Position numbers and translations under genes: made by a program. The notes under the pieces were generated by a model. That model saw only the letters and a program-made list of their open reading frames with translations, was not told the DNA's origin and did not search any database. A stretch of 64,000 nucleotides of DNA from Hydnum rufescens UP504 (lineage: Eukaryota > Basidiomycota > Agaricomycetes > Cantharellales > Hydnaceae), in contig MU128919.1 of the NCBI GenBank assembly GCA_014904985.1, positions 391,879 to 455,878 of the forward strand. The letters run 5' to 3'. Of this stretch, positions 19,101 through 32,600 are shown one piece after another (the stretch's first letter is position 1; each line of letters starts with the position of its first letter).

Positions 19101-20865
19101 CCATTCAGGCCTGTGCCTTCGGGGGCATCAGCGAGTCCAAGAGACACAGTGGAAGTGAAAGCGGGGGAGGAAGGTATAACATATCCACTGTAGACAAGGG
19201 TGCGAGTGTCGGTCGTAACCCTTTGGGAAACCGTGGTCACCCGTGGTTGCGCACCGCCTCCCGGGTACACGGCAACTTTGACGGATGTGCGTCGGGCGCA
19301 ATCTTGGAGGTCGTTGCAACCAGGGATGTACAGATATACATCGTACGTTCCGGAAGCTGAAACATACGGGTACCAAGTAAGGGTTGGTGCATCACCCGCG
19401 GCCGTCCCGACATTCACGGTGGCCATGAGAACAGTCTGTGTTGTGGCAGCGATTGACGTGCTAGCCGTGACTACGGACCACTGGCCAGTACTTTTCACGG
19501 ACGAACCAGAGGGAGAATAGCAGGAGATTCCATTATTAGATGGGATGGAGGACGCGAAGGCACCTGTAAATATATTTGTGAGATGTCGCCAAAATACATC
19601 GGATGCATCCAATACACACCGTCAGAGAGGACCTGCAACAGATGGAGCCCAGAACCTGGGCCACTCCATGATAAAAGGGTAATCTGGACGCCCGTAAGCG
19701 TCGTCGATGCGTCAAAGGTGAAATCCTGATATGGAACGGAGGGGTCGGATAGAAGAGGGCACGAATTGGAGCAAGTTAAAGTTGCTTTGGTACTAGGGTC
19801 GATATATGTGAGGGTGAGAATGTTGTTATCGGGAATCGATATCACACTGGGCATAAAAAAGGCACGTATAAAACAACCGTAGTTCCCAGAATATCATGTA
19901 TGAATCACTCACTTGAAAGTTTTAGTGCCACGACCTTGAAGGAAAGTGTTGCCCAAACGAACGCCTCTGGCGGTTGCGTACTTGTTGGTGCGAACGGTAA
20001 TCAAGGTTGGTGTTCCGGCTGTTGAGAACCACGAATTCCCAGGCCCATCACTGCCTGCTGGACATAACACATTTGTAATGTTATTGAAGCCGGACAATGA
20101 TGACGATGGATTTGCGTTGATATCGACAGTTGTCAGGGGAAGGGGGACGAGCGAGGACGAGAAGGGTGACGCTCCACTGGAATACGGTACATTTGGGTTG
20201 TTGGTGCTATTCCCAGCACGAGTGCTAGATCCATATGTGGTGACAAAGGATCCACCAAAATATAAACTTGACCCGGAGGAACTAGGCACGATAGAACGGA
20301 CAGATGGAGAGAACCCTGACAAACCGACAAAGGCGGCAGGGGACCACCGTGATGCGTTTGTGTCGAAGATTGCCACGGAACCGCCATATAACGAGGCGTC
20401 TGCCCCCACTGGCGCATGGAATGTACCTCCTACCCAGACATTCCCGGTCACAACATCACAATATAACGCGTCAACGGTGGCGTCCAACCCTGAGCCCAAG
20501 GCGACAAATTTCCCGGAGGTCGTGTTGTACGATGCAACGTTGGGGAAAGGCACCCCAGATAGACTGGAGAAGTTGCCGGCGACATAAAGGTTATTGTTCA
20601 ACATACAGGCCGCAGTGATGGATCCCCCGACATTGGTTGAGCCTAAAATGATCAGGGTGCCATTGGCTGCGCGGGACACAAGGGCGGAGGTGGAGGGATC
20701 AAAGACTAAAGTGGAATTGTTGAACACGTCGAGCCCAGCAAATGAACCTGTGAGGGCGACCTTGCCCATGCGCCTAAAGTCGACTTTCGGGACGCTAGCA
20801 ACGACAACATTAATGACGAAAACCAAAATGGCAAAGCGAAGGATATAGGAAGCCAAGACAGTCAT
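16163..20865 (-). CDS. RAX2: Rax2-like cortical polarity protein with SH3 tail
   Basis: Rax2 is a single-pass plasma-membrane landmark for polarised growth and septum-site memory. Nine exons (minus strand): 20865-19913, 19846-19620, 19563-17764, 17704-17511, 17458-17277, 17223-17162, 17105-16839, 16785-16287 and 16229-16163. They sum to 4,251 nt, 1,416 residues. Features in order: signal peptide (ILRFAILVFVINVVVASV), a long Ser/Thr/Asn/Gly-rich ectodomain with repeated kelch-like blades (LYVAGNFSSLSGV, VFLGGSFSVTN, LFVGGAFSDTV, LFVGGNFTLRN), a transmembrane helix (GIVFFLLLIGVLWTLL), and a cytoplasmic tail. The tail ends in an SH3 domain: RYSFDGEGEGELPL and AVLDDRDAA are joined by the last intron to WWYVRDQRTGREGIVPAAYLY. 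Without that intron the frame stops falsely at 16283. A broken copy of exon 3 lies at 9428-10376. Confidence 0.93.
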
Positions 20866-22777
20866 GGTAGAGCAAGAAAGTCAGATGGCCTGTGTACCTC
20901 GAGCCAGACGGCGTGGACGAGGTCCTTGACGCGTCACGGATATGGAAATGAACTGGAACAAGGAACGGTTGAGGTTGGGTCAAACAAATTCGGCATCCCC
21001 CGACTCCTAATTTGGTATGATTTACAGCGCTACGGGATTGGTCTTATATCCGTCCTGTAGCTGTGCCTGGATGAGGAGATGGTGGTAACTCCCGGCCCAC
21101 AGCGCACCGCCGTACCTTGACAAACCAGCGGTACCTATGGCAAACGATGCACAGTCGTGCTACTTTCGATGGTTAATAGTGGTTAATGAACATAGAGGAC
21201 CATTCATTCGGCTTCAATAGATCTAGAGTTTCCCAATTGATGCGCTACCGTTTGCTCAAGATATTAGAATTTAGAAACACAAGAGGTTGTACATGTGTGC
21301 ATTAATAAAAGGAGGACAGGATTCTTGTGCCCAGTTGCTGTATGTCAAGCTTAGCCCCCAAATTTTCCCATCTTTCACACTGTTAAATCTTGAATACAGG
21401 TTTGCTGACAGCATGAACTCTCTGTGAGTCGTTCTATTTTTTCGGCGCATTCCAGCTCAGTGATCCTTTGAGCGACCGCCTCTGGGATGCTGTCGCCATA
21501 AGTGATACTGACGGAGTCTCAGGGATGTACGTGGCCATTCGTCTTCTCGATGATTCAGTGAGAAAGAGATCGTGGTCGTCATCGAACGTACCGACAGACT
21601 CGGAGATCACACAAAAACTTACATGGATACTATCTCCAAGACCCTAATATCGACATTGGCATGATATTCTGGAAGAGCCTTTGTCTCTTGATTGAATATA
21701 ACACTGACACTGGCCTCCGCGACCAGACCCCAGGTGACGTATGTCTATTTTCATACGTGTGCCATCTTCCCCACCTTCTCGTCCCCTGATTCTGGTGCTG
21801 GGAGGATACAGTATGCCGAACAGTACATCAATTACCTCTACTTGGAAGGCAGCTTCAATCCCAGTCCCTAGATCTGCTCTTTCCATTTGGAGAATATGTC
21901 GCCAAGTACAACTTCTCAACGCAGTCAACATCTATTACATTGATTGATATATTATCCGTGCCCACCCTCTATGCATCGAAGCTTTTCGGCTCTGGCATTC
22001 TCCATGTCCTCCAGACAGGCTCCTTAGCCGCAGTGAGGGTCAGGAACAGCGAACTGGACGTAAAATCCAAGCCCTTCTACCAAGTGCCTGTGCATTTTTC
22101 CGAAGGATTATCATTATTCGCGCCTGGGGTCCTGAGACAGGAGACAGACCCCCCGAATCATCATATCCATGCCGTCGGTTCTGAAACTCACAACACGCAC
22201 CAGGACTGGACTCACTTAAATCGGCACGCAGATAGAACAGAATCCAGCAGGTAGGAAATCCACGTAATACATACGAATACCATACTGTGGTCAGAACAGT
22301 AGAAAATGGCCTGAGGTTAGATCGTTCGGACCAATTGACACCGGCTTCAGTCAGAGAGGAGGGTTTTGGGATGAAAATATTGCTGCATGTCACCAAATAG
22401 TTTCGCGCAGGACTAAATACGTCCGCATGTACGAGGCCCCATACGAATCGATGAGATCCAGGTTTTGCCGTCCCCATATCAGAGAGATCAATAGATCAAT
22501 CTACAAAACAACAGGGTTCCTTTATGTATCGATGCATATCTAAAGGAGCAAGAACGAGATGCTCGATGGACGGCGTGACCTCTCGAGTCACGGTCCGATT
22601 GTGACCGGTATACTCCGTTGGAACATTACGCCGATAACTAAACAAGGGGTTCAATTCCTGGTACACTAAGTGTACCATGGTGCGTACCCTATTCCAGTTT
22701 TGCCTAGGGGAGCAAACTTAAAGCCCTTGATGTAGTCTCGCCATCGATTTATTAGAAATTTGGATCTCGCAGAAGAG
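20866..22777. other. Long intergenic region upstream of RAX2 and HBS1
   Basis: This is the shared 5' region of the divergent RAX2 and HBS1 genes. Short frames (for example 22040-22477 minus, 145 codons) look partly protein-like but have no recognisable motif. A short palindrome GGTACACTAAGTGTACC lies near 22661-22677. Confidence 0.4.
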
Positions 22778-23995
22778 ATGTCGTCAGACCCCATCTCTTC
22801 TGACGACGATATAGATGACAAGCGTCCACCAGAGAATTATCCAGGGATAACTCCAACGCAGCGCGCCCAAATGGAATCAGGTCTCGTACACGTCCGATCG
22901 CTTCTTGGGGCTAGCAATTCAATTACCGATCGAGATATCCGTGAGTCCCTTTGGGATACATATTTCGATGTCGAGGGCACCGTAGAATGGCTGCTGGAGA
23001 AGCGCGAAGAAGGGGCCGAGGCGGCCCAAAAAGGGAAAATTAAACAAAAAGGTGGGTTTGATGCTGTACATTCTATCGTACACTTCCGACATCTTGGATC
23101 CACACTTTTCATCTTTTTTCTCATTCGTTTCTTGCCATCGTCCGATTGCATTATGTGTTAAACAACACTTCTCCAACGTCTTTATCGATCGAGCATAGAC
23201 CTCCATTCTCAATCTGGAACTGTCGCTACTCCCGCCCCTCTCTCCGCTCTTCAGCGACTCTCGCTTGCCAGCCAGGAAAGTCATAAGACCAAGCGGAAGC
23301 TGCCCTTGTCATCACTTGCTCGAAAGATACAGCCTGCGAATACCGAGGCACTCTCCCCATCACATCAAACGCTATCTACTTCGCAACAAGCATCTCTCCC
23401 GACTCGACCGCACACCCGCATCAATAAGGACACTTCCCAAAAATCACCCCTCGTTGTTCCCACGAACTCCGGCCTTTCCAGCCTCGCCCGTAAAGCCATA
23501 GACCGTAATTCGTCTCAAAGTGAAAGTGGTTCTTTTACAGGCCCCAGAACCTCCAAGCTTGCCCAAAAGATCAAGCTAGCCCAGTCAGCCTCACAAAATA
23601 AAGGGGCAGCTCTTGCTGCAGACGATTCTGTCCAATCATCCCTCCCCCCCCTGCCCCAGGATACTACTGTCCTTGAGAATCCAAAGTCTCTGCCAGATAT
23701 CCTGTTCTCCTTCGGGGCGGCCTCGAGATTGTCGTCGCCCCCAACTACTCGATCAGATATCCCCCCTGCGACCCCTATTGCAGCATCTGCATCGACGTTT
23801 GCATCGATCCTCGTCTCGGCGAAAGATATGTCGTTGCCCCCAGGGACGCGGGTACTTTTGGACAACGAGGGATTCAGATCTACGCACAACCGCGAATCCC
23901 TCTTCACTTTTAACACGCCAAGTCCTGATGATATCGTGCTCGCCAAGCGAGCGGGGACGAGGCTAGCCAAGCAGCGCGCAGGCGGGGCGTTGTAA
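22778..23995 (+). CDS. SKI7: Ski7-like alternative product of the HBS1 locus
   Basis: Ski7-like proteins bridge the Ski complex and the cytoplasmic exosome in 3'-5' mRNA decay. This product uses the same first exon (22778-23051), then the alternative acceptor at 23198 and exon 23199-23995, which ends in its own TAA (1,071 nt, 356 residues). The second exon is Ser/Pro-rich and holds repeated SSLARK/LAQKIK motifs and a conserved-looking end, [17 protein letters not shown], resembling the C-terminal Ski7-like motif of short HBS1 isoforms. Both acceptors are phase-compatible with the one donor. Production of Hbs1 and Ski7 forms from one gene by alternative splicing is known in other fungi, plants and human HBS1L. 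The isoform here is inferred from sequence only. Confidence 0.75.
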
Positions 23996-26320
23996 ATCTG
24001 AGGTGAGCCCCCGAAATTCCAATGACCTCAAGGCCCGTTCTGACGTCTTCGAGCTTATTAGAAACTTTTTCTAATTCATCTACTCATTCTAATTAATTTC
24101 TATTGCTACTCTCCCAACTTTCAAACAACCATCTTTCCCTCGTTTTCGCATTCAAGATGCTAACTCTTTACTTTTCAAATTGTATGTCGATCCTGACAGC
24201 TAAAGCCAACAAGGCGAGGAGTGTACCCGGCACTCCAACAAGGAAGACAGCACCCCAGCCATCTCGCACGGCAATCGAGCGCACCATGCAGCGTGCTGGA
24301 CATTCTGCCCCATCAACCTCAGCCCCCACCCCAGTATCCACCCGTCCTTCGTCCCCTGCCCCTATATCACCAGCCTCCCCTTCCTTCGTGTTGGCCACGG
24401 GGGTTACAGGGATATCATTGTCCCAAGAACTGCCGCCTCCACCTGGAGACGAGCCAGCTATGAGTTATTCGCGCACGAAACTTCTCGAAGAGGCCCGCCG
24501 ATCCCTTACATCTACCGATGGTGGTAAGACGGCTGCCAGTATGGTCGTCATCGGTGCGTTCGATCATTGCTCTTTGTCGCACTCTGGATTATTATATCGT
24601 TTTCATAGGCCATGTTGACGCTGGGAAATCCACTCTCATGGGCCGACTCATGTACGAGCTGGGTCCACTTGATGAAAAACAGCGTGTTGCGAATGAAAGA
24701 GCCAGTGACAAGCTAGGGAAGTCTAGTTTCTCCTGGGCGTGGGGTCTTGATGCTCTAAGCGAGGAGCGAGATCGGTATGTTTGCTTGAAATTCACACTCG
24801 TATATTTCTTTGTCAATCTCATTTTCTGACACCATGGATTGCAGCGGTGTTACGATGGACATCACACAAACTACCCTCCCCCTACCAACGATCACTCTCA
24901 CCATATTGGACGCTCCCGGCCACAAAGACTTCGTCCCAAACTTGATATCTGGAGCCTCACAAGCCGATACGGCCCTCCTCGTCGTGGATGCTAGTGTAGG
25001 CGAATTCGAAGTTGGGTTTCGCGGAGGCGGTCAAACCAGGGAACACATTCTGCTCGTCCGAAGCCTCGGTGTATCCAGTCTCATTATCGCGATAAACAAA
25101 CTAGACATGGTGCATTTTCTGGGGCTCTTGTCTCATGCGTTCCTGACCAGATGTTGTCTAGGTGGAGTGGTCACAAACTCGTTATAATGAGATTTGCGGG
25201 ATTCTTCGCCCCTTCCTAGTTCAGTCTGGGTTTCAACCTTCTCGCCTGTCGTTCGTCCCGTGTGCCGCGATGAAGGGTGTCAATCTGACAACGAACAAGG
25301 ATTCAACGTTGAAGAAGTGGTATTCAGGACCCACTTTGGCCCAGGAACTCGGTATTGTGTTCTGCATCAATGGTAGGGGATGCGCGATTCATGATTCCTT
25401 TTCCAAGATAAAATCGTGCCCCCTTCGCGAGATATAGACAGCCCATTACGCCTACCCGTTTCCAATGTGTTCCGAGGGGGTGCTGGTGGAATTTCTGCTG
25501 GCGTTGGTGTGTCTGGCCGAGTATGCACAGGGTTTCTTCAGGTCGGCGAGAAATTGCGCGTCCTCCCTGGTGATGAGATCGCGACCGTCCGCAGTAAGTT
25601 CTTTCATTTCTTTATTAGTTCGCTAATGTGTTCAATGGTTCGCAGAGGTTGAAATAGATGATCAGTCTGGTTCCTGGGCTGCTGCCGGCGCCAATGTGAC
25701 CCTGTACCTGTCTGGACTCGATTTGGTCAACATCAGGTCAGCACAATGTGACTCGCTAGCTGGAATTGATAAGCAGTTGTATTGAAGCCTTTACTCTCTC
25801 AGTGTCGGTAGTGTTCTTTGTCCCCCCTCGAATGTGGTACAATTAGCCTCGCATTTCGTCGCCCAAATCATTCTCTTCGATTTGACGCTCCCCATCACCT
25901 CGGGTGCCACCGTAAGTAGACTAAGATGTCCCAAAGAAACAGAACTAACCCATCCTGTGACATCATAGATCGAGCTTTTCCATCACTCACGCGACACCCC
26001 CGCCACCATCAGTAAACTTATTGAGACGATCGATAGAGCAACCGGCGTGGTTCTGAAGACCAAGCCCCGTGTTCTCAGCAAGAATACTTCTGCACGAGTT
26101 GAGATTCGGATCAAATCTTCTCCTACCTCTGCGATCAAGGCAGTGTCTATTCCTCTGGAAACATTCACTGTCAATAAGGATATGGGCCGAATAGTCCTAC
26201 GGAGGGGTGGCGAGACCATTGGTGCCGGTATGTTCTGGGGAAGTGCAGTGTAAATGATCTTTCATCCTGACACTGTTCCCCCAAACCCATGCAGGGATTA
26301 TCACGGAAATTATTTCCTAA
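22778..26320 (+). CDS. HBS1: Hbs1-type translational GTPase (ribosome rescue)
   Basis: Hbs1 with Dom34/Pelota splits stalled ribosomes in no-go and non-stop mRNA decay. Ten exons for this isoform: 22778-23051, 24200-24553, 24609-24774, 24845-25109, 25162-25351, 25408-25593, 25646-25736, 25803-25911, 25969-26227 and 26295-26320. They total 1,920 nt, 639 residues, close to yeast Hbs1. The N-terminal HBS1_N domain ([22 protein letters not shown]) is followed by a Ser/Pro linker and an EF-Tu-like GTPase: G1 GHVDAGKST, switch I GVTMDI, G3 DAPGHKDF, G4 INKLDM. Domains II and III follow ([34 protein letters not shown]). The 273-nt exon 1 plus one base ends in phase 1 and joins in frame to the acceptor at 24199, skipping the Ski7-like exon. 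Confidence 0.93.
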
Positions 26321-26605
26321 CTTCCGGTTTCACCTGTTGTAGTCTTGGATGACCATACCCAGTGGAAACCCACAGAATTCCATAGTATATGCTACAATGT
26401 GTAAAATACGGCCAAAGAAAGCAAGATTCTGAAAACAAGAAAATAAGAGAGGAATGGGTGGAAGGAGATAGAAGAGACAAGATATCAAGCTGACAGGTCC
26501 GTAACATTGGAGACATGGAGACAAGGCACAGCAGAGGAGTTAGGGAAACAGGCGCGATGAATATGAATTGGGAACAAGTAAATCGTCGGTTGGAATTGAA
26601 TAAAA

Positions 26606-29600
26606 TCACTTTCCGTGGTGGTGGAAAATACCCTTGACTTCCTTCTTGATCTTTCCGAAGAGACTAAATGCGAGACAAGTGAATACGAAGCCCAAAAGAA
26701 AGCACGAAATAGTTTACCTCAGTCGTTTCTTGCGAGGAGCGTCTTTCAAAACAGTCGGAGTGGAAGTGGCACTTGAATCAGCTGGAGCCACTTCATATTC
26801 ACCAGTTGGTGTCGTAGGAGACTCGGCCTCCTCCTCTGACGTGGCAGGCCCGGTGGACGGGGAAATCGGTACCGACGTTTCAGCGGCAGGTTCAGTTGCG
26901 GGCGCGATAATTTCGTCTGCGGGGGATGGCGAAACGGGGCCCGGTTTTTCAGTGGTGAGGTCAATTCCTCGGGAGACAGTCCCATGTTCGGCCACGTTCT
27001 CAGCGAGGATGGGTTCAGAAGAAGCTGGCAGCTCCGTTTCCGATGGAGCTGCGGATAACGCTGGCGCAGGGGCAGGTATTTCAGCTTCTGGGGACGTCAC
27101 ATCAATAGGTGCTTCTGTTGCTGCAGCTTCAATTCCTGGGGAAGGAATTGCCTCGTCAGTGGATGCGACAACCACTGCCGATTTGTCAGTGGTAACTTCA
27201 CCTGTTGGGACGACCCCCTCATCCTCGATTACAGCCTCAGTGCGACCAGGTTCAGGAGAGGCCAACGGTTCTGTTTCAAGAGAAGCAGCTGACACCACTG
27301 GCGCAGGCGCGGCCATTTCAGGCTCGCGAAAAGTCACATCAGGGGATGCTTCTGTTGCTGCAGATTCAATTGCCTGGGGGACAATCGCATCCTCAGGTGG
27401 TTGCAAAACCGCCACCAATTTTGCAGTGGTATCGTCACTTGTTGGGGCAACAATCCCATCCTCGGCTGCAACCTCAGCGACCTTAGGTGTAGTGGCAGCT
27501 GGCAGTTCTGTTTCCGGTGGAGCTGTTGATAACGTTGGCACAGGCACAGGAGCTTCAGCTTCGGGCGAGGTTACGCCAATGGGTGCTTTCACTGCAGCTT
27601 CACTTGTCGGGGCGACAATTCCATCCTCCACTAAAGTCTCAGCGACGATAGGTTCAGTAGCTGATGGCTCCATTTCTGGCGAAGCCGCTGACACCACAGG
27701 CACAGGCGTTTCAGGTTCGGGCTTCGTCACATCATTGGATGTTGCTGTAGCCATGGGCTCAAGCGGTGCGGTAAGAATCGCGCCCTCAGCGGACGGGGGA
27801 ATCTCCGCCGACTTTTCCGTGCCTGGAACAAGTATTGGGGTGACAGTCTTATCCTCAGCTATGGCTTCAGAGACGGCGGGCTCAGGAGAGGCTGCTAGCT
27901 CTGTTTCTGGTGGAGTTACTGTTAACGCTGGAACAGGCACGGGTGTTTCAGGTTCGGTTGATGTCGCATCAATGGGTGCTCCTGTGCCCATAGGTTCAAG
28001 TGGTGGGACGACAATCGCCTCTTCCGTGGATGGGCGAACCGCTGGCGACCCTTCAGTCGACGGGGCAGTCCCATCCTCGACTACAGTCTCAGCGATAACA
28101 GGTTCAGGAGAGGCTGCTGGTTCTGTTTCCGGTGGGGTCAATAGCGACGCTGGTGCTGGCGCAAGCATGTCAGGTTCGGGCGATGCCAAATTAACGGGTG
28201 CTTCTGTGCCCGTACCTTCAAGTGGTGGGGCGACAATCGCCTCAGTGGATGGGAAAACCACGGCGGACCTTTCAATCGGGTCAATTGTTGGGGCACCAAT
28301 CGCACCCTCGGTTACAGGCTCGGCCACGATAGGTTCAGCCGGAGGTGGTGACCCCATTTCCAGGGGAGCTGCCGACACTGCTAGCGTAGGCACGTGTGTC
28401 TCAGGTTCGGGGGAAGTCGCCTCAGTAAGAGCTCCTGTTGCCGCTGCTTCAGGTGGCGGGGCGCCAATCGGCTCCTCAGTGGATGGGAGAATCGTCGTCG
28501 ACTGTTCCGTTATCGGGTCAATCGTTGGGACAGCAATCCCATCCTTGGTCACAGCTTCGCTGACAATAGGTTCGGGAGAAGGTGGCGACTCTACTTCCAG
28601 AGGTGCTGCTGACAACACCAGCTCGGGCTCAGCTATTTCAGGTTTGCGCGAGGCCACCTCAGTTGGTGCTTCTGTTACCGCTGCCTCAAGCGGTGGGATT
28701 GTAATCGGCTCCTTAGTGGATGGGAGAACCACTGACGACCTTTCAGTTGGCTCAATTGTTGGGACAGCAATCACATCCTCGGTTACAGCTTTGGCGACGG
28801 TAGGTTCAGCGGAAAGTGACGACTCCACTTCCAGAGGAGCTGATGGCAACACTGGCACAGGCACGGGTATTTCAGCCTCAGGTGATGTGGCCTCGACGGG
28901 TGCTTCTGCTTCTGCAGCTTCAAGTGGTGGTGGGACAATCGCATCCTCAGTTACAGCGTCGGCCACGAGAGATTCAGAGGGAGGCAGTGAATCTATTTCT
29001 GGAGGGGCTGCTGACACCACTGGCGTAGGTACGGGTGTTTCAGATTCGGGGAAAGTTGCCTCAATGGGTGCTTCTGCTGCTTCGGGTGGTGGGGCAACAA
29101 TCGGCTCCTCGGCGGATGGGAGTACCGTTACAGACTTTTCAGTGGTCGGATCAATTGTGGGGATAACCCCATCCTTGGTTACGGTTTCGGTCACGATAGG
29201 CTCAGCGGGAGGGGGTGACTCTATTTTCAGAGGAGCTGCTGACACAGCCGGCGCAGGTGCGGGGGTTTCAGATTCAAGGGAAGTCACCTCGGTGGGTGCT
29301 TCTGTTACCGCAGCTTCAACTTGTAAAGTGGCAATCGGCACCTCGGCGGATGGGAGAATCATTGCCCTTGGGTCAATTGTTGCGACGACATCGGCTGCAC
29401 CTTCGGCAACAATAGGTTCAGCGGAGGGTAGCTCTGTTTCTGACAGAGCTGCAAGCACTGGGGGCGCAGGGGTAGCCGAGTCAGGTCCAGGCGACGTCAC
29501 CACAGTGGCTGTTTCTGGCGCCACAGATTCGATTGCTGGGGTGACGATGGCATCTTTGACAAGATCAGCGGAGGATGGTTCTTCTGGTTCTTGTGCAGCT

Positions 29601-32600
29601 GCTGGCGGCCCAGGCACAGGCGCAGCTATCTCAGATTCGGGTAATGTCGCATCGGCCGGTGCTTCTGTCGGGGCAACATTCGCATCCTCAACGGATTGGG
29701 GGATCACTGCCGACTTTTCAGTGCTGGGATCGGTGGTTGGGGCGACAATCACATCCTTGGCTAGAGCTTCGGCGAGGATAGGATCAGCGGAGGGCAGTTC
29801 TGTTTCTGACAAAGCTGTAGGCACAGGTGCAACTATTTCAGGTTCGGGCGACGTGACATCGGCGGGTGTTGTTGTGGCCACGGATTCAATTGCTGGGGCG
29901 ACGATCGCATCCTCTGCTACAGCTTTGACAGGATCAGCGGAGGACGGTCCTTCTGGCTCCTGCGCAGCTGCTGGCGCCACGAACACAGGTACAGCTATTT
30001 CAGATTCGGACAATGTCACATCAGCCGGTGCTTCTGTCGCTATGGGCTCAAGTGGTGGGGCAGCAATGGCATCCTCACCAAACGGGTGAGTCACTGCCGG
30101 CTTTTCCGCGCTGGGATCGATAGTTTGGGGGACAACCACATCCTTGGCCACAGCCTCGGTGAGGACGGGATCAGCGGAGAGTAGAACTGTTTCTGACAAA
30201 GCTGCAGGTGCTGGTGGCACAGGCGCAACTATTTCAGGTTCAGCAGGCGACGTGATATGAGTGGGTGTTTCTGTGACCACCGATTCAATTGCTGGGGCGG
30301 CAAATACACTCTCGGCTATAGCATCGGCGACGATAGGATGAGCGGAGGATAGTGCTTCTGTTTGTTCCGGGGCTGCTAGCACCGCAGACTCAGGTGCAGT
30401 GACTTCAGGTTCGGGCGACGTCACATCAGGTGTTTCCGTAGCCACAGGCTCACGCGATGAGGCGGCAATCGCATCCTCAGCGGATAGCAGAATCTCGGAC
30501 GACTTTTCTGTGCTCGGATCAATTGTTGGAGCGACAATCTCACCCTCGGCTACGGCTTCAGCAATCGTAGGTTCAGTGGAAGCCGATGGTTCTGTTTCTG
30601 GCGGAGGTGCTGGCACCGTAAGCGCAGGCACGGGCGCTTCAGATTCGGGCGACGTCACATCAGGGGCTGCTTCTGTGGACGAGGCTTCGATTGCTGGGGG
30701 GGCAATGGTATCCTCGACATAATCAGTGGAAGATGATATTTCTCTTTCTTCCGGAACTGCTAGCACCGCAGGGGCAGGTGCAGCTATATCAGGTTCAGGT
30801 AACGTCACATCGGTGGGCGTTTCCGTGGCCACGGGCTCAAGTGGTGTAGCAACAATCGCATCCTCAGCAGATGGCAGAATCGCTGCTGACTTTTCCGTGC
30901 TCGGATCAATTGTTGGAGCGACAATCTCATCCTCGACTACGACTTCGGCAGCGATAGGTTCAACGGAAGCTGATGGCTCTGCTTCTGGCAAAGGTGCTGA
31001 CACCGCGGGCGCAGGCGCAGGCGTTTCAGATTCGGACGAAGTCACACCAATGGCTGGTCCTGTGGACAAGGATTCAATTGCTGGAGGGACAATCACATCC
31101 TCGGCTACGGCTTCGGTGACGACATGATCAGCAGAGGGTGATGCCTGTGTTTCCTCTGGAGCCGTTAGCACCGCAGGCACAGGCGCAGCTGTATCGGTGT
31201 CGGGCAACGTCACATCGGTGGGCGTTTCTGTGGCCACGGATTCAAGTGGCGGGGCAACAATCGCATCCTCAGCAGATGGCGGAATCACTCCTGACTTTTC
31301 CGTGCTCGGGTCCATTGTTGGGATAACGATCTCATCCTTGGCTACGGCTTCGGGGGCGATAGATTCTGCGGGAAGTGATGACTCTGTTTCTGGCAAAGCC
31401 GCTGACACCGTAGGCGCAGCTATCGGGGGTTCGGGCGGCGTCACGGCAGCGGTTGTTTCGGATTCAATTGCTGGGACCGCACCCTCGGCGACAGCTTTGG
31501 CGACGATAGGCTCAGCGGAGGGTGGTAACTCTACTTCCTCCGGAGCTGCTGGCACCGCAGGTTCAGGCGCAGCTACTTCGGGTTCGGGTGTTGTCGCATC
31601 AGCGGGAGTCTCTATAGCTACGTGTCCAACTGGTGGGGTGACAATGGCATCCTCAGTGGGTGGAAGAATTACTGCCGACTTCTCCGTGCCGGGACCAATG
31701 GTTGGAGCGACAATCACATCCTCGGCCACGGGTTCTGCGACGATAGGATCAGCGGGAGGTAGCGGCTCCGTTCCTAGCAAAACTGCTGAGACCGAAGGCA
31801 CAGGCGCGAGTATTTCAGCTTTGGGTGACTCCACATTAATGGGTGTTTCCGTGGTCGCAGCTTCAAGAGATGGGATAACAATTACATCCTCCGTGGCTGG
31901 AAGAAGCACTGCCGATTTTTCAACAGCAGTTTCAACGGCTGGGGGGATATTCACGTCATCGGTTGCAGCCTCAGGGGCGATGGATTCACCGAAGGCCGGT
32001 AGGTCTGTTTCCGATAGAGCCACTGGCGCAGGAACAGGTATTTCGCTTTCGCGCGACTTGACACCGGCGAGAGCTTCTGTTGGCCCTAGATCCTCCACTG
32101 AGGGAGTCGGCACGGTCTCGAACGCTGCAGGAGGCTCTAGGACTTCAGAACCCTTCACTGGCACCGCTATGGCCGTAATATCCGAAGGAATGAGGACTGG
32201 TTCAACGTGCACGGGTTCCGGGTCCTCAGGTTCGGGGACGAGGACAAGCTCCGGGATCTTTTCTTCAAATTCTACGGTCATAATGGGCGCAACGTCTTGT
32301 GTGGTGAGTAGCGAATTTAACCGGAGTAATAATAACGAGAAACCAACCTTTATCTGAAGTAACATCGATGGCTCGTACAGCTTCACCCTTGAATTCTGAA
32401 TCGGGAAGCTGGAAAGGATAATGTTCAGTACACACCTGGAAGAAATCGAGGGAAAAATAATGCACATTCTCTGAATTGATCAAATCGATTCCGGTGAAAC
32501 TCTTGATCGCCAAACCGACGTTACTGGCGACGTAGTCAAACATTGATGCCCTATTCCCATTGGGAGAAGCAGCATCAGGGACGGCAGGGGCCTTAGAGAC

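What the first reader, a model, noticed from the sequence alone, without database searches (positions are those of the whole stretch)
22778..26320. One locus built to make both Hbs1 and Ski7 by acceptor choice
A single donor (after 23051, phase 1) can use the acceptor at 23198, giving a 356-residue protein that ends in its own TAA with the Ski7-like motif [17 protein letters not shown]. Or it can use 24199, giving a 639-residue Hbs1 GTPase. Both joins are in frame: G+AC gives Asp, G+CT gives Ala. The principle is known elsewhere, but the architecture here is clean, and automatic annotation would likely split it into two genes or fuse it wrongly.
Basis: partly seen in the sequence, partly recalled or inferred. 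Interest (0 to 1): 0.85.

Follow-up and report, generated by a model that had tools for sequence, protein, structure and literature searches.

The report
Hedgehog mushroom dual HBS1/SKI7 gene
One gene of a hedgehog mushroom appears able to make two different RNA quality-control proteins, a ribosome-rescue enzyme and an adaptor for the RNA-degrading exosome, by using or skipping one exon; this is a further example of an arrangement already described in fungi, animals and plants.

Summary
One donor (23052) can join two acceptors in frame: 23198, giving a Ski7-type protein that stops at TAA 23993-23995, or 24199, giving the Hbs1 GTPase. Two corrections. The start codon lies upstream, at 22677-22679, before a 56-nt intron, so the proteins are 371 and 654 residues. 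And "acceptor choice" is incomplete: a U1-like donor (GAG|GTGAGC, 24003) follows the stop, so the Ski7 exon may be a true cassette exon; without RNA this is open. A deposited protein of Hydnum rufescens UP504 equals the 371-residue form letter for letter; no near-identical Hbs1 GTPase was listed. All 11 Ski7-like hits of a length-limited search end 15-26 residues after SPDD. The only two exon-specific PDB profile matches, both weak, are Ski7 chains. The principle, and a probable GTPase-less basidiomycete version, was published in 2013 for Cryptococcus neoformans and Ustilago maydis. A well-supported new member of a known kind; no transcript evidence was available.

The parts
22677..22679 (+). 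Start codon, last codon of the first exon
   Evidence: ATG|GTGCGT; restores MSRHRFIRNLDL; spliced Ski7 model identical to deposited P0001
22680..22735 (+). Intron 1, 56 nt, shared by both products
   Evidence: GTGCGT...GTAG, phase 0
22736..23051 (+). Shared exon with HBS1 N-terminal domain (PF08938)
   Evidence: Pfam HBS1_N E 1.7e-16
23052..23198 (+). Intron removed for the Ski7 product, 147 nt; donor shared with Hbs1
   Evidence: AAG|GTGGGT ... CATAG|AC; no CTNAY branch motif 12-60 nt upstream of the acceptor
23199..24002 (+). Ski7-specific exon: coding to TAA 23993-23995, then in-frame TGA 23999-24001; 804 nt if it ends at 24002
   Evidence: Open frame; translation ends *I*; length and stops rechecked; no Pfam match
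23786..23815 (+). SKI7-like motif [10 protein letters not shown]
   Evidence: S305 and F307 invariant, L311 nearly invariant in A1; published metazoan consensus A+PShFAahL; coordinates rechecked
23903..23968 (+). Patch-4 (Csl4-binding) type motif [22 protein letters not shown]
   Evidence: PSPDD and RxGTxL in 11 of 11 rows; in register with 5jea_K and 9g8m_E at PSPDDIV/SPDDIV
24003..24008 (+). Candidate donor GAG|GTGAGC; seven bases lie between it and the TAA
   Evidence: 7 of 9 U1 matches, a level reached by 80 of 3628 + strand GT sites; on the nine-intron matrix it is only in the top 9.3% of GTs
24160..24164 (+). Candidate branch point CTAAC for acceptor 24199
   Evidence: Branch A 36 nt before the AG; 1.4% of window AGs have CTAAC 12-60 nt upstream
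23052..24199 (+). 1148-nt intron removed for the Hbs1 product
   Evidence: the nine other introns of the gene are 52-70 nt
24200..26320 (+). Hbs1-specific exons: linker, GTPase and beta-barrel domains; TAA 26318-26320; introns 24554-24608, 24775-24844, 25110-25161, 25352-25407, 25594-25645, 25737-25802, 25912-25968, 26228-26294
   Evidence: Spliced 654-aa model; Pfam GTP_EFTU and GTP-eEF1A_C; best PDB match HBS1L 5lzw_jj, E 1.6e-122, for the 629-aa version

Best explanation
This is the SKI7/HBS1 gene of Hydnum rufescens, the only Ski7-like locus found in its assembly. A pre-mRNA with a shared 5' part is spliced in two ways from one donor. Joining 23051 to 23199 includes the Ski7 exon and gives a 371-residue GTPase-less adaptor whose C-terminal patch would bind the exosome (Csl4) and reach the SKI helicase. 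Joining 23051 to 24200 skips that exon and gives the 654-residue Hbs1 GTPase that works with Dom34/Pelota to release stalled ribosomes. Shown here: reading frames, splice-site sequences, conserved Ski7 motifs and stop position, identity of the Ski7 product to a deposited protein. Inferred: that both mRNAs are made, the biochemical functions, and the way the Ski7 mRNA ends (cassette exon or alternative last exon; see the first two rivals, which are variants of this explanation rather than alternatives to it).
For: Frames and junctions. HBS1_N, GTPase and EF1A C-terminal domains; match to HBS1L over residues 24-627. The 371-aa model equals deposited BS47DRAFT_85531 of H. rufescens UP504. Eleven of 11 Ski7-like hits lack a GTPase and end 15-26 residues after SPDD with RxGTxL kept. 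A profile of them matches four PDB sequences at E up to 10: two in the N-terminal domain and two in the Ski7 part, 5jea_K (Superkiller protein 7, E 0.082) and 9g8m_E (HBS1-like isoform 2, E 0.67). Two R. solani models, P0016 (Hbs1 form, 632 aa) and P0023 (with the Ski7 part, 881 aa), share 95 N-terminal and 536 C-terminal residues and differ by what lies between, after ...AAAAKK. Both matches of the Ski7 query in the own genome lie at this locus. Published EST evidence for the same kind of exon skipping in two basidiomycetes.
Against: No transcript evidence. The PDB matches of the Ski7 part are weak (HMMER marks them '?'), and the single-sequence search with the 356-aa form found only 3mca_A, in the N-terminal domain, at E up to 10. 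Acceptor 23198 has no CTNAY branch motif nearby; acceptor 24199 scores poorly on a nine-intron matrix (78% of window AGs score as well or better), though it has CTAAC. Pelota matches in the genome were two sub-cut-off exons. SKI3, SKI8 and exosome subunits were not searched. The 11 Ski7 hits were found under a length limit that excludes long fused proteins, so 11 of 11 is biased. A Malassezia study lists SKI7 as 'No hits' in M. restricta (passage), so not every basidiomycete search finds a Ski7.
Confidence: 0.87

Rival explanations
1. Variant of the best explanation: cassette exon with its own stop. Ski7 mRNA carries the exon 23199-24002 spliced at 24003 to 24200, so the GTPase exons become a long 3' UTR and the message may be open to nonsense-mediated decay. 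Same proteins, different mRNA end.
For: Donor GAG|GTGAGC with seven bases between it and the TAA, 7 of 9 U1 matches, a level reached by 80 of 3628 window GT sites; AGGTGAG occurs 7 times on the + strand of 64 kb. The exon would be 804 nt, a multiple of three, phase 1 to phase 1.
Against: The intron 24003-24199 would be 197 nt against 52-70 nt for the nine other introns. On the nine-intron matrix the donor is unremarkable (top 9.3% of GTs). One of six GTs in the stretch after the TAA reaching 7 matches is not very rare. Marshall et al. suggest that the matching annotated intron in C. neoformans and U. [quoted passage not shown]
Confidence: 0.3
2. Variant of the best explanation: alternative last exon. 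Ski7 mRNA is cleaved and polyadenylated between 23996 and 24199, as the reader proposed and as human HBS1L exon 5 is described.
For: The stretch is T-rich and low in GC (0.36 T, 0.39 GC), like an intron or UTR. Human ESTs with exon 5 as last exon (legend); the 2013 paper's reading that the matching intron in two basidiomycetes is not a true intron.
Against: No poly(A) signal was tested with a fungal model; base content does not tell UTR from intron; the donor at 24003 is unexplained; the 2013 paper calls the basidiomycete mechanism not entirely clear.
Confidence: 0.6
3. A long Ski7-GTPase fusion of ascomycete type made from the same gene.
For: Fused gene models exist in relatives: 12 of the 131 proteins held carry both the SPDD/SPDE motif and the GTPase, and five of the 12 keep RxGTxL.
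Against: TAA and TGA in frame; from the SPDD codons to the TAA the only phase-1 GT is 23922, 4 of 9 U1 matches, inside the motif. Earlier phase-1 GTs exist in the exon (23280, 23490, 23505, 23520, 23526, 23529; 23505 has the best matrix score, 6.3), but splicing there would drop the patch. Seven of the 12 fused models lack RxGTxL, as if a gene finder had spliced round a stop; three of these seven are Kwoniella proteins (P0123, P0127, P0130) whose motif is divergent anyway.
Confidence: 0.03
4. Two separate genes, a Ski7 gene and a GTPase gene with its own promoter inside the 1148-nt stretch.
For: Many GTPase-only models were listed.
Against: Without the shared exon the GTPase part lacks the HBS1_N domain that full-length models such as P0014 and P0016 have.
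Confidence: 0.05

Closest known systems
SKI7/HBS1 of Cryptococcus neoformans and Ustilago maydis (Marshall et al. 2013, PMC3597508; sections 6, 8, 9, 13 and 26 read)
   Same: Single gene; the Ski7 exon(s) are skipped for Hbs1; inclusion is suggested to give a truncated GTPase-less Ski7.
   Different: There EST support exists and the mechanism is left open; here there is no RNA, but one large exon, a conserved C-terminus and a donor next to the stop can be seen.
Human and zebrafish HBS1L/SKI7 (HBS1L3)
   Same: Shared N-terminal domain, GTPase-less Ski7 ending in the exosome-binding patch; human SKI7 residues 602-616 bind CSL4 and 617-632 reach SKI2 (passages); zebrafish likewise lacks the GTPase (passages).
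   Different: Human SKI7 is longer (to residue 632) with a separate SKI3-binding helix (451-464) that was not identified here.
Ascomycete SKI7/HBS1 (Lachancea kluyveri, Aspergillus nidulans)
   Same: One donor, two acceptors, with Ski7-specific sequence between them.
   Different: There the long isoform continues to the C-terminal GTPase part (96 against 70 kDa in L. kluyveri); here TAA and TGA stop it.
Arabidopsis At5g10630 HBS1/SKI7 (Brunkard and Baker 2018, PMC6143672, passages read)
   Same: A cassette exon carries the SKI7-like motif.
   Different: The plant Ski7 isoform keeps the GTPase domain.

Membership tests
Alternatively spliced SKI7/HBS1 locus | HBS1 N-terminal domain and EF1A-type GTPase encoded in one gene | tested here: met
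   PF08938, PF00009, PF22594 in exons that join in frame
Alternatively spliced SKI7/HBS1 locus | Two in-frame products sharing the first exons | tested here: met
   106 shared residues; 371 and 654 aa
[quoted passage not shown]
   [10 protein letters not shown] and [12 protein letters not shown]; weak but in-register profile matches to 5jea_K and 9g8m_E; consensus; single-sequence search did not find them
Alternatively spliced SKI7/HBS1 locus | No separate Ski7 paralogue in the genome | tested here: met
   Both matches of the 371-aa query at E up to 0.001 lie at this locus; the assembly may be incomplete
Alternatively spliced SKI7/HBS1 locus | Both mRNAs are made | not testable with these tools
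   No RNA data
Alternatively spliced SKI7/HBS1 locus | Products rescue hbs1 and ski7 mutants separately | not testable with these tools
   Needs yeast complementation
GTPase-less (animal and basidiomycete type) Ski7 | Own stop shortly after the patch-4 motif | tested here: met
   TAA 20 residues after SPDD; 11 of 11 hits of a length-limited search end 15-26 residues after it
GTPase-less (animal and basidiomycete type) Ski7 | Ski7 exon is an alternative last exon with its own poly(A) site | not testable with these tools
   Donor at 24003 leaves a cassette reading open
Ascomycete type long Ski7 with GTPase | Ski7 part including the SPDD patch reads in frame into the GTPase | tested here: not met
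   TAA and TGA in frame; only a poor in-frame GT inside the motif precedes them
Working Ski7/Hbs1 pathway | Pelota/Dom34 and a Ski2-type helicase in the genome | tested here: inconclusive
   Pelota: two exon-sized matches below the cut-off; DSHCT domain at two loci over the cut-off, as expected for Ski2 and Mtr4 but not told apart

The most novel reading that the evidence does not exclude
The Ski7 exon is a true cassette exon that carries its own stop just before a functional donor, so every Ski7 message has splice junctions downstream of its stop and is itself open to nonsense-mediated decay: an RNA-decay adaptor whose level is set by RNA decay.
Probability: 0.15. Interest if true: 0.5.

Novelty: new member of a known kind. 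Interest (0 to 1): 0.3.

Why it matters
Marshall et al. (2013) wrote that it was not entirely clear which mechanism basidiomycetes use to make a Ski7-like protein. This locus gives a simple case, one large Ski7 exon with a conserved C-terminus and stop, in which RNA reads across 23996-24200 would decide between an alternative last exon and a stop-bearing cassette exon. It also shows a recurrent annotation problem: gene models of relatives are split or fused.

Tried and rejected
Acceptor 25437 for the intron starting at 25352 (629-aa Hbs1) was rejected because it drops the conserved stretch before SPLRLPV; acceptor 25407 restores [19 protein letters not shown]. Splice-site matrices from nine introns are too small to rank the two acceptors; I report the scores but do not lean on them. 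Rfam gave nothing in the window at gathering scores. The bacterial promoter and terminator scan gave nothing and does not apply to a fungus. DNA of relatives, which could test whether the donor at 24003 is conserved, was not fetched: no metagenome scan was allowed, and states that this genome has no relatives held. The 2018 PNAS paper on Ski7 conservation (PMC6055164) was not held and was not read, so what it says on basidiomycetes is unknown to me; PMC4942675 and PMC5389692 were also not held. Two papers from the search lists were checked by passages: PMC7468201 (Malassezia, lists SKI7 as 'No hits') and PMC2613156 (no mention of alternative splicing, its one basidiomycete passage is about eRF3). 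Searches were further paper searches, used for HBS1L3 and for the genus.

Full report
What is there. The window lies in a 63-Mb, 539-contig assembly. Its Ski7-type product is identical over all 371 residues to hypothetical protein BS47DRAFT_85531 of Hydnum rufescens UP504, a hedgehog mushroom in the Cantharellales; I take the window to be this genome or one nearly identical to it. The gene runs from the start codon at 22677 to the TAA at 26318-26320 on the + strand. The start codon ends its exon: ATG, then a 56-nt intron, then the shared exon 22736-23051.

The two products. From the donor at 23052 (AAG|GTGGGT) the transcript can go to 23198 or to 24199; both joins are phase 1 and in frame. The first gives 371 aa with TAA at 23993-23995, followed after one codon by an in-frame TGA. 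The second gives 654 aa. The shared exon has the HBS1_N domain (E 1.7e-16); the downstream exons have GTP_EFTU and GTP-eEF1A_C domains; the Ski7 exon has no Pfam match. The Hbs1 model (629-aa version) matches HBS1L in the PDB over residues 24-627 (E 1.6e-122). In 2000 first-order Markov resamples of the 1148-nt stretch, 3 had an open frame of 277 codons or more, the mean longest frame being 124.

Is the exon Ski7? The search with the 356-aa form gave 11 proteins at E up to 0.001, of 7997 candidates scored: the deposited Hydnum protein, a protein from a 1285-base contig (source jgi) at 80% BLAST identity, Clavulina sp. PMI_390, Microbotryomycetes sp. JL221, and seven others without organism names. 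Aligned, they keep SxF, PSPDD and RxGTxL in all 11 rows, and all 11 end 15-26 residues after SPDD without a GTPase. The search admits only proteins of 0.55-1.75 times the query length, so long fused proteins could not appear; the count is biased in that way. P0003 ends in GALQI where Hydnum reads GAL*I*, as expected if its stop lies two codons later. A single-sequence PDB search found only an N-terminal match, 3mca_A, at E up to 10. A profile of the 11 rows gave four sequences: 3mca_A and 1ufz_A in the N-terminal domain, and in the Ski7 part 5jea_K (Superkiller protein 7, E 0.082) and 9g8m_E (HBS1-like protein isoform 2, E 0.67), both in register at SxFxS and SPDDI. That these are exosome-bound yeast Ski7 and human SKI7 is recalled. 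The E-values are weak, but these are the only exon-specific matches among 177,635 sequences. In the human complex the matching patch binds CSL4 and the residues after it reach SKI2 (passages).

One gene or two? Both matches of the Ski7 query in the genome are this locus. In Rhizoctonia solani an Hbs1-form model (P0016, 632 aa) and a Ski7-containing model (P0023, 881 aa) share 95 N-terminal and 536 C-terminal residues, as expected if one donor serves two acceptors; these are gene models, not transcripts. Of 131 proteins held, 24 contain SPDD or SPDE; one (P0065) I take as a chance match; 11 are the GTPase-less set; 12 are fused to the GTPase. Seven of those 12 lack RxGTxL, as if gene finders had spliced round a stop, though three of the seven are Kwoniella proteins with a divergent motif; five keep it (P0017, P0022, P0026, P0028, P0125), so a real fusion in some species is not excluded. 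In Hydnum a fusion that keeps the patch is unlikely: from the SPDD codons to the TAA the only phase-1 GT is 23922, a poor donor inside the Ser codon. Earlier phase-1 GTs in the exon, the best by matrix at 23505, would drop the patch.

How it probably works. The nine other introns of this gene are 52-70 nt; the Ski7-path intron is 147 nt, the stretch from 24003 to 24199 is 197 nt, and the Hbs1 path must skip 1148 nt. Acceptor 24199 has a CTAAC branch motif (1.4% of window AGs do) but a poor matrix score (78% of AGs score as well or better); acceptor 23198 has no CTNAY motif but a better score (top 6.5%). Only 5 of the 9 other introns have CTNAY in that range. I draw no preference from this. The donor GAG|GTGAGC at 24003 has 7 of 9 U1 matches, as many as the best of the nine other donors (4-7); 80 of 3628 window GT sites reach that; on the nine-intron matrix it is only in the top 9.3%. 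It allows a cassette reading in which Ski7 messages keep the GTPase exons as a 3' UTR. The other reading, a last exon with its own poly(A) site, resembles the human arrangement and fits the 2013 suggestion that the matching basidiomycete intron is not a true one; I rate it higher. Partners: two DSHCT loci (as in Ski2 and Mtr4) and weak Pelota exon matches are present; SKI3, SKI8 and exosome subunits were not searched.

What is known. Marshall et al. 2013 (PMC3597508; outline and sections 6, 8, 9, 13 and 26 read) reported alternative 3' splice sites in ascomycetes, and exon skipping with a suggested truncated Ski7 in C. neoformans and U. maydis, calling it not entirely clear which mechanism makes the Ski7-like protein. 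Brunkard and Baker 2018 (PMC6143672, passages) extended the subject to plants and invertebrates. For zebrafish see PMC7924785 (passages). In the lists I recognised, from titles and the starts of abstracts, no other paper on basidiomycete Ski7; the Malassezia paper mentions SKI7 in a table as 'No hits'. The 2018 PNAS paper by Marshall et al. is not held.

Annotation. For Hydnum the searches listed the Ski7 product but no near-identical GTPase product: the highest identity among the listed hits was 67% (120 of 7344 hits listed) and 69% (120 of 238 listed). From the 749 bits of 356 identical residues, a Hydnum product overlapping the query by more than roughly 280 residues should have made those lists; a shorter fragment could have been missed. 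Cantharellus anzutake has a 909-aa fusion that breaks off the patch at SPDDI.

Verdict. A correct and careful reading of a real dual-coding locus, with a missed start codon and an open 3' end. A new member of a known kind.

Noticed in passing
window 26714-32479, - strand: Open frame of 1921 codons (stop to stop), Pro/Ala/Glu-rich and repetitive, converging on HBS1, with a 1161-codon open frame on the opposite strand at 26604-30089; no Pfam match; tandem repeats of about 234-237 bp at 28197-28951.
   Followed up: partly
window 19909-20880, - strand: Open frame with Rax2 domain matches (PF12768 just over its cut-off, PF20842 just under), upstream of the gene.
   Followed up: partly
P0012, P0023, P0029, P0068 (proteins of other fungi): Fused gene models that leave the Ski7 patch a few residues after SPDD or SPDE before joining the GTPase, probably wrong splicing round a stop.
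   Followed up: partly
P0002 (protein from a 1285-base contig, source jgi): Reads straight through the stretch that is the 147-nt Ski7-path intron in Hydnum, where the window has a stop; the intron length is a multiple of three.
   Followed up: no
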